From Kutzneria sp. 744 (GTDB lineage: Bacteria; Actinomycetota; Actinomycetes; Mycobacteriales; Pseudonocardiaceae): a stretch of 43,120 nt of DNA. Positions 24,551-27,228 of this stretch are shown here, in pieces. The position numbers and the translations under genes are program-made. The stretch is from positions 6,362,182 through 6,405,301 of the forward strand of contig NZ_KK037166.1 of the NCBI RefSeq assembly GCF_000568255.1, given 5' to 3'. The notes under the pieces were generated by a model, which searched no databases, had not been told where the DNA came from, and saw only the letters and a program-made list of their open reading frames with translations. The stretch's first letter is position 1; every line of letters starts with the position of its first letter.

Positions 24551-24868
24551 ATGAAGTTGGCTCTGCCCACACTGACCCCTGAGCAGCGTGCGGAAGCGCT
24601 GGCGAAGGCTGCGGAAGCCCGCAAGGCCCGCACCGCGCTGCTTGCTTCGATCAAGTCCGGTGAGACGACCTTCGGTGAGGTGCTCAAGCGGGCCAAGGAC
24701 GACAAGACCGTCGGCAAGACGAAGGTCGCCCAGCTGTTGAAGGCCGTGCCCGGGCTCGGCGCCGTCAAGGTCGCCAAGCTGCTCGAGGAGACCGGCATCG
24801 ACGCCGACCGTCGCGCCGCCGGCCTCGGCGACCGGCAGCGCCAGGCGCTGCTCGACGCGATCGGCTGA
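24551..24868 (+). CDS. mihF: Actinobacterial integration host factor (MihF/sIHF-like)
   Basis: 105 residues from ATG 24551, preceded by AGAAAGGACC. Features match the actinobacterial IHF family: N-terminal LPTLTPEQRAEALAKAAEAR helix, a central GKTKVAQLLKAVPGLG helix-two-turn-helix-like lipid of DNA contact, and the C-terminal RRAAGLGDRQRQALLDAIG. These basic nucleoid proteins bind and bend DNA and affect supercoiling and antibiotic production. The canonical gene sits next to gmk, but here it is alone between an L,D-transpeptidase and an ADP-ribosylglycohydrolase gene, so it may be a paralog. It is followed by a strong bidirectional terminator. Confidence 0.88.
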   Translation: MKLALPTLTPEQRAEALAKAAEARKARTALLASIKSGETTFGEVLKRAKDDKTVGKTKVAQLLKAVPGLGAVKVAKLLEETGIDADRRAAGLGDRQRQALLDAIG

Positions 24869-24965: not shown

Positions 24966-26240
24966 TCACCAGCCCGGATAGCGCTCCAGCCAGGCGTCGT
25001 CGGTGGGCGGGTTCGTCCCGAACTCGGCCAGCGCGTCCCTGGTCACGGCCGTGATCGTCGGGCGAAGCTCCAGCCGCTCCAGCCACTCGGCCGGGATCGC
25101 GGCCACACCGTGCCACGCCCCGGCCAGGTTGCCGCAGACCGAGCCGGTGGAGTCGCTGTCGCCGGAGTGGTTCACCGAGATCCGCAGCGCCTCGGGCAGG
25201 TCGTCGGTCACCAGCGTCGCGTAGACCGCGATCGCCAGCGTCTCCTCGCCGACCCAGCCCCCGCCCAGCTCCTCGGCCATCCGCTCGGGGCTGACCGACC
25301 CCTCGTCGGCCAGCCGCACCGCCGCGGTCAGCCGGGCCAGCTGCTCCTCGTGCCCCGGCCACCTCGTCAGCACGGGCGTCAGCGCCGCGATGCAGTCCGG
25401 CAGCGAGGTGCCCTTCAGCAGGCCGTGCACCAGGAACGCCAGCGAGGCCGCCGACAGATAGCCGCTCGGATGGCCGTGCGTGAGAGCCGCGGTGGCGGCC
25501 CCCAGCGCGAACACCACCTCGGGATCTGTCGACCACAGCGCGACCGGCGCCGCCCGCATGACGCCGCCGCAGCCCTTCGAGTCGTTCAGCGGGTTGGCCA
25601 TCGAGCCGGCCGGATTGCCGGCGGCGTACACCCGCAGCGCCGTCACGCACGTGTTGCCCGGGGCGCGGCGCGCGAAGAGACCGCGTTCGGTGATCAGCCA
25701 GCCGTCCGGCTGCGACCGGCCCTCGGCGAACGGGCCGCCGGCCTGCGGCCAGTCGAAGCCCTGCGTGTGCAGCCAGCGCTGCAGGGCGTGCTGCACCACC
25801 GGCACGGGGTCGTCCGCACCGGAGACGCGGTCGCGGACATGGGCCCGGATCAGGCCCTCCAGCGTGAACAGCGTCATCTGGGTGTCGTCGGTGACCGTGC
25901 CGTCCGGGCCGCCCGGCCCGAAGCCGGTGACGCCGCGCTCGCCGTGCTGGCGCCGGATCATGTCGATCGGCAGGAACTCGATCGAGGCCCCCAGAGCGTC
26001 CCCGATCGCGCCGGCCAGCACGCAGCCCAGCACCCGGTCCGACCAGGTCAGCGTGGGCAGCGGCATCGGGAACTTGCGGCCGCTCTCGTCCAGGCCGATC
26101 GGGAAGTCGTGCCGGCCCGGGTCCGACGGCCGCAGCCGCTGATCCACCGGCACGGCCAGGCTGTCCATGTGGAACCGGGTGATCCGGTCGATGTGCTCCT
26201 GGTCGGTGCCGGGAGTCCACTCCCACTCGCTCATCGCCAT
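24966..26240 (-). CDS. ADP-ribosylglycohydrolase (DraG/ARH family)
   Basis: ATG 26240 gives 424 residues; the in-frame ATG at 26234 is nearly equivalent. The DraG/ARH fold is shown by GCVLAGAIGDALGAS (about 70-85), the metal-binding TDDTQM (about 118) and NHSGDSDSTGSVCGNLAGA (about 357-375), whose Asp residues hold the di-Mg2+ centre. These enzymes remove ADP-ribose from modified proteins or nucleic acids. The first 70 residues are an extension before the canonical fold, and there is no signal peptide. Its start lies 1 bp after the stop of the YbaB-ART gene, so both are surely co-transcribed. The natural reading is that it reverses or neutralises the modification made by the neighbour. Confidence 0.93.
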   Translation of the reverse strand: MAMSEWEWTPGTDQEHIDRITRFHMDSLAVPVDQRLRPSDPGRHDFPIGLDESGRKFPMPLPTLTWSDRVLGCVLAGAIGDALGASIEFLPIDMIRRQHGERGVTGFGPGGPDGTVTDDTQMTLFTLEGLIRAHVRDRVSGADDPVPVVQHALQRWLHTQGFDWPQAGGPFAEGRSQPDGWLITERGLFARRAPGNTCVTALRVYAAGNPAGSMANPLNDSKGCGGVMRAAPVALWSTDPEVVFALGAATAALTHGHPSGYLSAASLAFLVHGLLKGTSLPDCIAALTPVLTRWPGHEEQLARLTAAVRLADEGSVSPERMAEELGGGWVGEETLAIAVYATLVTDDLPEALRISVNHSGDSDSTGSVCGNLAGAWHGVAAIPAEWLERLELRPTITAVTRDALAEFGTNPPTDDAWLERYPGW

Positions 26241-26241
26241 G

Positions 26242-27228
26242 TCAGCCCAGCTCCTCCAGTGCGATGTCCCAGCCCTTGATGCTCGGGTAGTACCGCTTTC
26301 CGGTGACGCGGAACGTCGCCCCCGGCCCGAACACCACCTCGCCGAACTGCTCGCCGTCCTCGGAGATCGCCCCGATCAGCTTGCCGCCGTGCCGGGCGTC
26401 GATGGTGTAGCGGACCAGGCCGTCGCCGGTGTAGGCCGGATTGGCCGAGGTGCTCAGGAAGGTCCGCTCGACGATCGTGTCGCCCAGCTGGTACTCGGCC
26501 GCGATGGACGCCGCCCGCTCCGGATCCCGCACGCCCAGCACCCGGGTCACCACGCCGGTGTAGGACGGAAGCTTGCTCAGCGCGCTCATCACGTGCTCGA
26601 TCTGGCTGCCGCTGTCCGACGTCTGGTCGGGCGCCGGCGGGGCCGGGTCCTGGATGGCGACCGGCGTCGGGACGGGTTCCAGCGCCGGCTCGGGGGCCGC
26701 GACCGGTTCCGGCTGTTCCGTGAAGTCCGGCTCGGCGAAGGTCGGCTCCGTGAACTGCTTCTGCTCGAACGGCGGCTGCTCGAACTGCTCCTCGGCGAAG
26801 AGGGCCTGCTCGGTCGGGTTCGACTCCAGGATCGGCGGCGGCCCGGCGGCGTGCTGCGGCTCCGGCTCTGGTTGCGGCTCCGGCTCAGCCTCCGGTTGTG
26901 GGACGTCCTCCGGCTCGGTCGCCTCGGCCCCGACCTGCCGCATCGCCTCGCGCACGGCGTCGGCCACCGCGTCGGCCAGGCTCGCCGGCGTGTGGTGCTC
27001 GAACGCGTCGCGGTCGAACGAGAGCCGGCGCAGGCCACCCGCGCCGTCGACGACCACCGTCACCATGCGGTCCGGTGACTGGGCCAGACCCGTGCGCGCC
27101 CGCAGATCACGGTTGAGCTGCTGGACATGGGCCAGCTGCTGCTGCGCGCCGGCCAGCAGCTGGCCCATCGAGTCCAGCATCGCGGCGTTGCGCGCCAGCA
27201 GCTCCGCCATCTGCTCCGAATCGGTCAT
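26242..27228 (-). CDS. YbaB/EbfC-like domain fused to an ADP-ribosyltransferase domain
   Basis: ATG 27228 (MTDSEQMAELLARN) gives 328 residues. Residues 1-100 form an N-terminal helix (LLAGAQQQLAHVQQLNRDL) and a YbaB-like strand-helix unit (MVTVVVDGAGGLRRLSFD, then ADAVADAVREAMRQVG). Residues 101-205 are a Pro/Glu/Gln-rich linker. Residues 210-328 fit an R-S-E-type ADP-ribosyltransferase: KLPSYTGVVTRVLG (Arg229), RTFLSTSANPAY (STS 259-261) and EQFGEVVFGPGATFRV (Glu297). The usual ExE motif reads FxE, so target specificity may differ from arginine-directed ARTs. No signal peptide. Coupled to the ADP-ribosylglycohydrolase gene. It could be a regulatory modifier of nucleoid or other targets, or a toxin whose partner is the immunity protein. 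ART assignment is motif-based. Confidence 0.8.
   Translation of the reverse strand: MTDSEQMAELLARNAAMLDSMGQLLAGAQQQLAHVQQLNRDLRARTGLAQSPDRMVTVVVDGAGGLRRLSFDRDAFEHHTPASLADAVADAVREAMRQVGAEATEPEDVPQPEAEPEPQPEPEPQHAAGPPPILESNPTEQALFAEEQFEQPPFEQKQFTEPTFAEPDFTEQPEPVAAPEPALEPVPTPVAIQDPAPPAPDQTSDSGSQIEHVMSALSKLPSYTGVVTRVLGVRDPERAASIAAEYQLGDTIVERTFLSTSANPAYTGDGLVRYTIDARHGGKLIGAISEDGEQFGEVVFGPGATFRVTGKRYYPSIKGWDIALEELG

What the first reader, a model, noticed from the sequence alone, without database searches (positions are those of the whole stretch)
24966..27228. YbaB-domain ADP-ribosyltransferase fusion coupled to an ADP-ribosylglycohydrolase
Seen: two genes 1 bp apart on the same strand. The upstream one joins a YbaB/EbfC-like N-terminus and a Pro/Glu-rich linker to a C-terminal domain with ART motifs (Arg229, STS 259-261, Glu297). 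The downstream one is a DraG/ARH-type ADP-ribosylglycohydrolase. Known: ART/ARH pairs act as reversible regulators (DraT-DraG) or as toxin and immunity protein (Tre1-Tri1-like). Inferred: this is a writer/eraser or toxin/immunity module whose writer carries a nucleoid-associated-type domain. That could direct ADP-ribosylation to DNA-bound proteins or DNA. It stands next to a nucleoid-protein gene (mihF).
Basis: partly seen in the sequence, partly recalled or inferred. Interest (0 to 1): 0.75.

Follow-up and report, generated by a model that had tools for sequence, protein, structure and literature searches.

The report
Domesticated-looking ADP-ribosyl toxin and its eraser
A soil bacterium of the genus Kutzneria carries on its chromosome a stripped-down relative of secreted ADP-ribosylating toxins, joined to a secretion-operon helper domain and coupled to the enzyme that would undo its work, which suggests that a weapon and its antidote were turned into a permanent cellular switch.

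Summary
P0001 (328 aa, 26242-27228 minus) is a YbaB domain, a drifting Pro/Glu linker and an R-S-E ADP-ribosyltransferase (ART) core. One base downstream lies P0002 (424 aa), a DraG/Tri1-like ADP-ribosylglycohydrolase (ARH). The pair is adjacent, with the same immediate neighbours, in 7 of 7 Kutzneria genomes held.

The nucleoid reading is not supported. The YbaB domain lies nearer to YbaB genes of type VII secretion (T7SS) loci than to the recR-linked YbaB group. Elsewhere in the family, relatives of this ART sit in large T7SS-type toxins, often beside ARH or small immunity-like genes.

New features:
- The Kutzneria ART lacks the ART N-lobe (0 of 7; toxin ARTs 28 of 28).
- Phe replaces the usual Glu/Gln of the specificity loop (7 of 7).
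- The ARH's N-terminal extension carries an IGLD motif shared with unnamed 71-94 aa proteins downstream of family ARTs.
- The ART core is under purifying selection (dN/dS 0.22).

Best reading: a captured T7SS toxin/immunity pair, now a vertically inherited intracellular writer/eraser (confidence 0.5). Rivals: still-exported toxin; disarmed partner of a defensive immunity protein. Activity, target and secretion are untested. New variant of a known kind; interest 0.5.

The parts
26242..27228 (-). P0001, YbaB-linker-ART fusion protein, 328 aa (incl. stop)
   Evidence: orthologues in 7 of 7 Kutzneria genomes
26914..27228 (-). YbaB domain, residues 1-105, nearer to the T7SS-operon type
26608..26913 (-). 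Pro/Glu-rich linker, residues 106-207, drifting
   Evidence: 34% mean identity, median dN/dS 0.78 for residues 101-207
26245..26607 (-). ART core, residues 208-328, without the N-lobe of toxin ARTs
26542..26544 (-). R229 codon, first R-S-E residue
   Evidence: invariant in 35 of 35 ART domains
26446..26454 (-). S259-T260-S261 codons
   Evidence: STS in 7 of 7 Kutzneria proteins; S259 column invariant in 35 of 35
26344..26346 (-). F295 codon, sixth position of the ARTT loop, where Glu or Gln is usual
   Evidence: Phe in 7 of 7 Kutzneria
26338..26340 (-). E297 codon, catalytic Glu position
   Evidence: invariant in 35 of 35
24966..26240 (-). P0002, ADP-ribosylglycohydrolase (ARH), 424 aa
   Evidence: PF03747 E 1.5e-76; DraG and Tri1 structures matched
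26046..26240 (-). N-terminal extension of the ARH, residues 1-65
   Evidence: upstream of the PF03747 match at 72-385
26085..26108 (-). DFPIGLDE (residues 45-52), IGLD motif, putative ART-binding element
   Evidence: 8 of 8 columns invariant in 7 Kutzneria ARHs; profile score above shuffles
25881..25892 (-). TDDT, putative metal-site motif of ARH enzymes (role recalled)
   Evidence: T117-T120 invariant in 7 of 7
25146..25163 (-). GDSDST, second putative metal-site motif (role recalled)
   Evidence: G360-T365 invariant in 7 of 7
24551..24868 (+). mihF-like gene, convergent neighbour, not part of the module
   Evidence: NF041260 122.7 bits; second copy at 135004 of the genome

Best explanation
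The pair descends from a type VII secretion (T7SS) toxin operon of the kind YbaB - WXG100 - WXG100_2/ART toxin - ARH immunity, found in several genera of the same family. In the Kutzneria ancestor the YbaB leader was joined through a free linker to a bare ART core. The WXG proteins, the toxin body and the ART N-lobe were lost. The product became a fixed, vertically inherited operon. The most likely present role is an intracellular, reversible ADP-ribosylation switch: the YbaB-ART protein is the writer, with an altered specificity loop and so probably an altered target. The coupled ARH removes the mark and, through its N-terminal IGLD segment, may also hold the writer in check, as the immunity protein Tri1 does with Tre1. 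Shown here: anatomy, kinship, synteny, selection, fold. Inferred: the order of events, catalysis, the inhibitory role of the IGLD segment, the intracellular role.
For: Origin. ART relatives were found in 92 of 390 family genomes, 7 of them Kutzneria. In 26 non-Kutzneria regions examined, 20 ART genes carry WXG100_2 or T7SS_signal at the N-terminus and 15 have an ARH on the same strand within six genes downstream. The YbaB domain sits nearer to the T7SS-loci set than to relatives of recR-linked YbaB. Fixation. One close pair in each of 7 of 7 Kutzneria genomes, same immediate neighbours; no plasmid or phage match of P0001. Only one ART match of this subfamily per Kutzneria genome. Selection. 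ART core median dN/dS 0.22 and 87% mean identity, against 0.78 and 34% for the linker; ARH 0.26. R-S-E kept. Coupling. 1 bp gap in 6 of 7 and a 1-base overlap in 1. Not a plain toxin. The N-lobe is recognised in 28 of 28 toxin ARTs and in 0 of 7 Kutzneria proteins. F295 in 7 of 7. IGLD. Motif invariant in 7 of 7; related small proteins have an ART within 1.5 kb upstream in 16 of 27 matches, 10 of 21 without the seeds.
Against: No activity, target or expression data exist. Loss of the N-lobe and of the usual Glu/Gln may mean that the core no longer transfers ADP-ribose. The Kutzneria ARH extension shares only the motif stretch with the small proteins: the family-wide search with their profile gave 0 of 7 Kutzneria genomes at E 0.01. 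The Kutzneria ART has no well supported sister among toxin ARTs (support 0.06-0.13). Three YbaB proteins that lead ART operons (L071, L073, L148) lie farther from the fusion YbaB than the nearest recR-type YbaB does. The own genome has four further ARH genes, so erasing may not be this ARH's task alone. YbaB-like proteins of mycobacterial ESX-1 are proposed secretion chaperones (PMC6107294 and PMC6319747, passages), so export is not excluded.
Confidence: 0.5

Rival explanations
1. It is still an exported antibacterial toxin with its immunity protein: the YbaB part acts as an in-cis chaperone or targeting module for one of the T7SS machines of the cell, replacing the WXG body.
For: YbaB genes lead T7SS toxin operons: 27 of 34 YbaB genes in the loci read have a WXG100, WXG100_2 or T7SS-signal gene within three genes downstream; of the 20 regions fetched for YbaB similarity alone, 15 do. 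The own genome has EccB and EccD. ARH partner as in Tre1-Tri1.
Against: No WXG100, WXG100_2 or T7SS_signal domain found in P0001, and no WXG-like gene seen beside it. The ART core is at least as conserved as its immunity partner (87% against 81% mean identity; dN/dS 0.22 against 0.26), and the immediate neighbours are the same in all 7 genomes; polymorphic-toxin loci usually vary (recalled). N-lobe missing.
Confidence: 0.2
2. It is a defensive immunity module: the ARH protects Kutzneria against incoming T7SS ART toxins of relatives, and the YbaB-ART protein is a disarmed, catalytically weak partner or decoy.
For: N-lobe absent and F295 in 7 of 7. Relatives in the same family carry such toxins. 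Immunity genes without a matching effector are reported for Tri1 (PMC10763514, passages). No other ART of this subfamily was found in the 7 Kutzneria genomes.
Against: R229, S259 and E297 are kept, and the whole ART core is under purifying selection, more than a mere remnant needs.
Confidence: 0.2
3. One reading: a YbaB nucleoid domain brings the ART to DNA or to nucleoid proteins such as mIHF.
For: YbaB fold; a mihF-like gene lies 97 bp beyond the ARH.
Against: Fails the nucleoid-YbaB cut-off that the recR-linked YbaB of the same genome passes. Tree places it nearer to T7SS-loci YbaB. mihF is convergent, a second copy, and no gene in the 8 non-Kutzneria mihF regions read matches P0001 or P0002.
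Confidence: 0.07
4. A DraT-DraG type metabolic regulator.
For: DraG-like ARH.
Against: DraG equivalog score 102 of 337 required; no DraT match; no nifH over cut-off; ART kin are T7SS-type toxins.
Confidence: 0.03

Closest known systems
Tre1-Tri1 (Serratia proteamaculans, PDB 6dre/6drh)
   Different: No PAAR/T6SS part found; ART N-lobe missing; Phe at the ARTT sixth position; Tri1 equivalog score 70.5 of 490 required; genus-wide chromosomal locus
ART-ARH effector-immunity pair of Listeria monocytogenes, Lmo0066-Lmo0067 (PDB 8za7)
   Different: 25% identity over the ART core; I saw nothing of a YbaB fusion there, but read no paper on this pair
YbaB - WXG100 - WXG100_2/ART - ARH operons of the same family (e.g. 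L070, L139, L144, L147)
   Same: YbaB, ART and ARH in this order
   Different: There YbaB is a separate gene and the ART sits in a large WXG100_2 protein with an N-lobe; the ARTT sixth position is Glu in these four, as in 19 of the 26 non-Kutzneria regions
YbaB-like ESX-1 proteins EspL and EspH of mycobacteria
   Same: YbaB-like and tied to T7SS substrates, proposed chaperones (PMC6319747, PMC6107294, passages)
   Different: Not fused to an enzyme in what I saw

Membership tests
Tre1-Tri1 type ART/ARH pair | R-S-E class ART fold | tested here: met
Tre1-Tri1 type ART/ARH pair | Glu or Gln at the sixth ARTT-loop position | tested here: not met
   Phe295 in 7 of 7; rule from PMC7827354 passages
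Tre1-Tri1 type ART/ARH pair | complete ART domain with N-lobe | tested here: not met
   0 of 7 Kutzneria against 28 of 28 toxin ARTs; Tre1 is aligned only from residue 56 on
Tre1-Tri1 type ART/ARH pair | adjacent ARH of the Tri1 equivalog | tested here: not met
   ARH present, but 70.5 bits of 490 for NF041672
Tre1-Tri1 type ART/ARH pair | immunity N-terminal segment that blocks the ART (recalled for Tri1) | tested here: inconclusive
   IGLD motif and conservation only; no match of the segment to a solved structure with E under 0.9
T7SS polymorphic toxin | WXG100, WXG100_2, LXG or T7SS_signal domain in the toxin | tested here: not met
   none found in P0001 with E up to 1
T7SS polymorphic toxin | toxin domain shared with T7SS toxins | tested here: met
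T7SS polymorphic toxin | immunity gene directly downstream | tested here: met
   ARH in 7 of 7
T7SS polymorphic toxin | export by T7SS | not testable with these tools
   needs secretion assay
YbaB/EbfC nucleoid-associated protein | YbaB fold | tested here: met
YbaB/EbfC nucleoid-associated protein | TIGR00103 equivalog score | tested here: not met
   31.8 of 49.45 bits
YbaB/EbfC nucleoid-associated protein | DNA binding | not testable with these tools
   needs gel shift
DraT-DraG | DraG equivalog, DraT family, nitrogenase reductase target | tested here: not met

The most novel reading that the evidence does not exclude
A secreted toxin and its immunity protein were captured and turned into a core, genus-wide ADP-ribosylation switch: a YbaB chaperone-type domain now carries a minimal 120-residue ART core with a new specificity loop, and its eraser carries an IGLD segment. 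That segment belongs to an unrecognised, portable class of ART inhibitors, also found as free 71-94 aa immunity proteins downstream of T7SS ARTs.
Probability: 0.35. Interest if true: 0.75.

Novelty: new variant of a known kind. Interest (0 to 1): 0.5.

Why it matters
Enzymes of polymorphic toxins have been proposed as a source of core cellular functions, there for eukaryotes (PMC3482391, passage). A genus in which the toxin domain, its helper domain and its antidote are frozen into one operon gives a direct test of such recruitment in bacteria. The IGLD proteins suggest a small ART inhibitor module that can be tested in a laboratory strain and that may explain immunity where no hydrolase is present: none of the 6 family loci with Gln or Gly at the sixth ARTT position has an ARH downstream, against 14 of 19 with Glu (Fisher p 0.003, optimistic because the loci are related; the one Met locus has an ARH and was left out).

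Tried and rejected

Small IGLD proteins: no Pfam family over its cut-off for the five scanned (one sub-threshold Emfourin match); no PDB relative of their profile with E under 0.3. Of 27 matches, 11 have no ART found within 1.5 kb upstream: three of these have an ARH nearby, four (L249-L252) look like unrelated or broken matches by eye, and for L249, at a contig edge, my flank arithmetic was wrong.

Rows dropped: regions L075 and L076, of 28 non-Kutzneria ART regions fetched, were left out of ART counts because R and E are not conserved there. The Fisher test leaves out L148 (Met, ARH present); L135 and L136 lie in one genome and are near copies. One of 20 recR-type YbaB loci (L220) fell to a length filter in the tree. 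The regions were picked by me from longer match lists. My gene calls come from a simple codon-position script, not a published gene finder; it missed mihF in L068, which one search shows. My ART, ARH, YbaB and WXG profiles were built from loci fetched here.

Papers. YbaB with ADP-ribosyltransferase: 0 papers; Kutzneria with ADP-ribosyl: 0 papers; other searches. These cover the held open-access library only. All papers cited were seen as passages (PMC7827354 also one short section). Passages of PMC7050489, PMC7764402 and PMC11217815 added nothing on this fusion. Ting et al. 2018 (Tre1/Tri1) is recalled, not seen.

Full report
What is there. Window 24966-27228, minus strand, holds two complete ORFs separated by one base. 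P0001 (328 aa) has a YbaB domain (PF02575, 47.4 bits), a Pro/Glu-rich linker, and a C-terminal stretch that phmmer relates to VsdC, SpvB and Tre1 from residue 208 on. P0002 (424 aa) is an ADP-ribosylglycohydrolase (PF03747 residues 72-385); DraG heads the solved structures matched and Tri1 is fourth, and the NCBI families matched, below cut-off, are DraG and Tri1. The genome is a single contig of 11.6 Mb.

Conservation. All 7 of 7 Kutzneria genomes held have one close copy of each gene, adjacent, between an L,D-transpeptidase-like gene (named by eye from the sequence) and mihF; beyond mihF two of them (L063, L066) have extra genes. The own genome has four more ARH genes, with no ART, YbaB or WXG profile match beside them. 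Median dN/dS is 0.22 for the ART core, 0.33 for YbaB, 0.78 for the linker, 0.26 for the ARH, and 0.30-0.38 for two flanking genes. So the ART core is not decaying; it is about as constrained as the core of the ARH (0.24).

Kin outside the genus. An ART-core profile finds 92 of 390 family genomes, 85 of them outside Kutzneria, but only 4 of the 395 other genomes drawn across the phylum. I fetched 28 regions (8, 20); two hold a degenerate ART, and the other 26 give 28 ART domains. Of the 26 genes, 11 have WXG100_2 and 9 T7SS_signal at the N-terminus by my profiles; Pfam agrees for the six of these scanned. ARH genes lie downstream on the same strand within six genes in 15 of 26. Several operons read YbaB - WXG100 - WXG100_2/ART - ARH.

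YbaB. Of the 20 regions fetched for similarity to the P0001 YbaB alone, 15 have a WXG100, WXG100_2 or T7SS-signal gene within three genes downstream of the YbaB gene; another, L111, holds EccB and EccD; in two my profile called no YbaB gene. Over all loci read, 27 of 34 YbaB genes have such a neighbour and 7 do not. In a tree with 19 relatives of the recR-linked YbaB, the 28 leaves nearest to the fusion YbaB are all from the T7SS-loci set; 6 of the 34 of that set lie beyond the first recR-type leaf. Passages of two papers describe the YbaB-like ESX-1 proteins EspH and EspL as likely chaperones.

What is odd about the Kutzneria ART. First, a profile of the 60 residues upstream of the ART core recognises 28 of 28 toxin ARTs in leave-one-out, and none of the 7 Kutzneria proteins (best E 1.6). 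The XopAI profile tells the same: P0001 is matched from position 137, four toxins from 34 to 79. [quoted passage not shown] Of the 26 other loci it is Glu in 19, Gln in 5, Gly in 1 and Met in 1. Some ARTs without an N-lobe are active (recalled), so this does not settle activity.

The IGLD segment. Kutzneria ARHs have a 65-residue extension in which DFPIGLDE is invariant, 8 of 8 columns, with 30 of 65 columns invariant overall. Small proteins downstream of family ARTs carry the segment DNFAIGLDDNLEPFP or variants of it (L131, L133, L134, L148, L074), and in L072 and L073 such a segment is fused to an ARH. Other small genes in the same place (L135, L136, L137) lack the motif. A profile of six such sequences finds 27 matches in 24 of 390 genomes; 16 of 27 have an ART within 1.5 kb upstream, 10 of 21 if the six seeds are left out. 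The profile does not find Kutzneria at E 0.01 in whole genomes, but scores the 7 extensions at 9.1-15.2 bits; 2 of 7000 shuffles reach the lowest of these, none the highest. Tri1 is described as acting by active-site occlusion and hydrolysis (PMC10763514, passage). I infer that the IGLD segment is the occluding part here; nothing shown proves it.

Reading. The origin from a T7SS ART operon is well supported. The present function is inferred. A core, strongly selected, non-WXG, N-lobe-less writer next to an intact eraser fits an intracellular switch better than a weapon, but an exported toxin and a disarmed partner of a defensive ARH remain open. The known kind is the ART/ARH toxin-immunity pair, listed in the survey PMC3482391 (passages: an ADP-ribosylglycohydrolase immunity protein strictly associated with R-S-E toxin ARTs). 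The variant is new, as far as the searches reach, in the fusion, the loss of the N-lobe, the Phe, and the genus-wide fixation.

Noticed in passing
L131 5941-6171, L133 7374-7625, L134 5725-6009, L148 8369-8626, L074 5964-6179: Unnamed 71-94 aa proteins with an IGLD motif downstream of T7SS-type ART toxins; putative new ART immunity family without a Pfam match over cut-off.
   Followed up: partly
L069 1137-2024, L143 13975-14979: Two ART operons in which no ARH was found carry an inosine-uridine nucleoside hydrolase family gene (PF01156) downstream, perhaps a different eraser.
   Followed up: partly
L145 2481-4247: A TNT-domain (PF14021) gene beside a WXG100_2 toxin with two ART domains.
   Followed up: no
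L075 7294-9699, L076 6517-8970: Proteins of about 800 aa have an ART-like stretch without the Arg and Glu; one search lists several further open frames of similar length. Perhaps a pseudo-ART.
   Followed up: no
L069, L070, L119, L127, L139, L140, L142, L143, L164: The flank of the rpsL-rpsG-fusA genes (named by eye) is a recurrent site of YbaB genes, most of them leading T7SS-type toxin operons; in L140 and L142 extra genes lie between YbaB and the toxin.
   Followed up: no
G262, G287, G316, G311, G356, G343, G202: ART-profile matches inside open frames of about 6,700 to 21,900 codons; nature not examined.
   Followed up: no
window 24551-24868: The mihF-like gene is one of two copies in the genome; this copy is 96-100% identical among the 7 Kutzneria genomes, while the best matches outside the genus are 82% or less.
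   Followed up: partly
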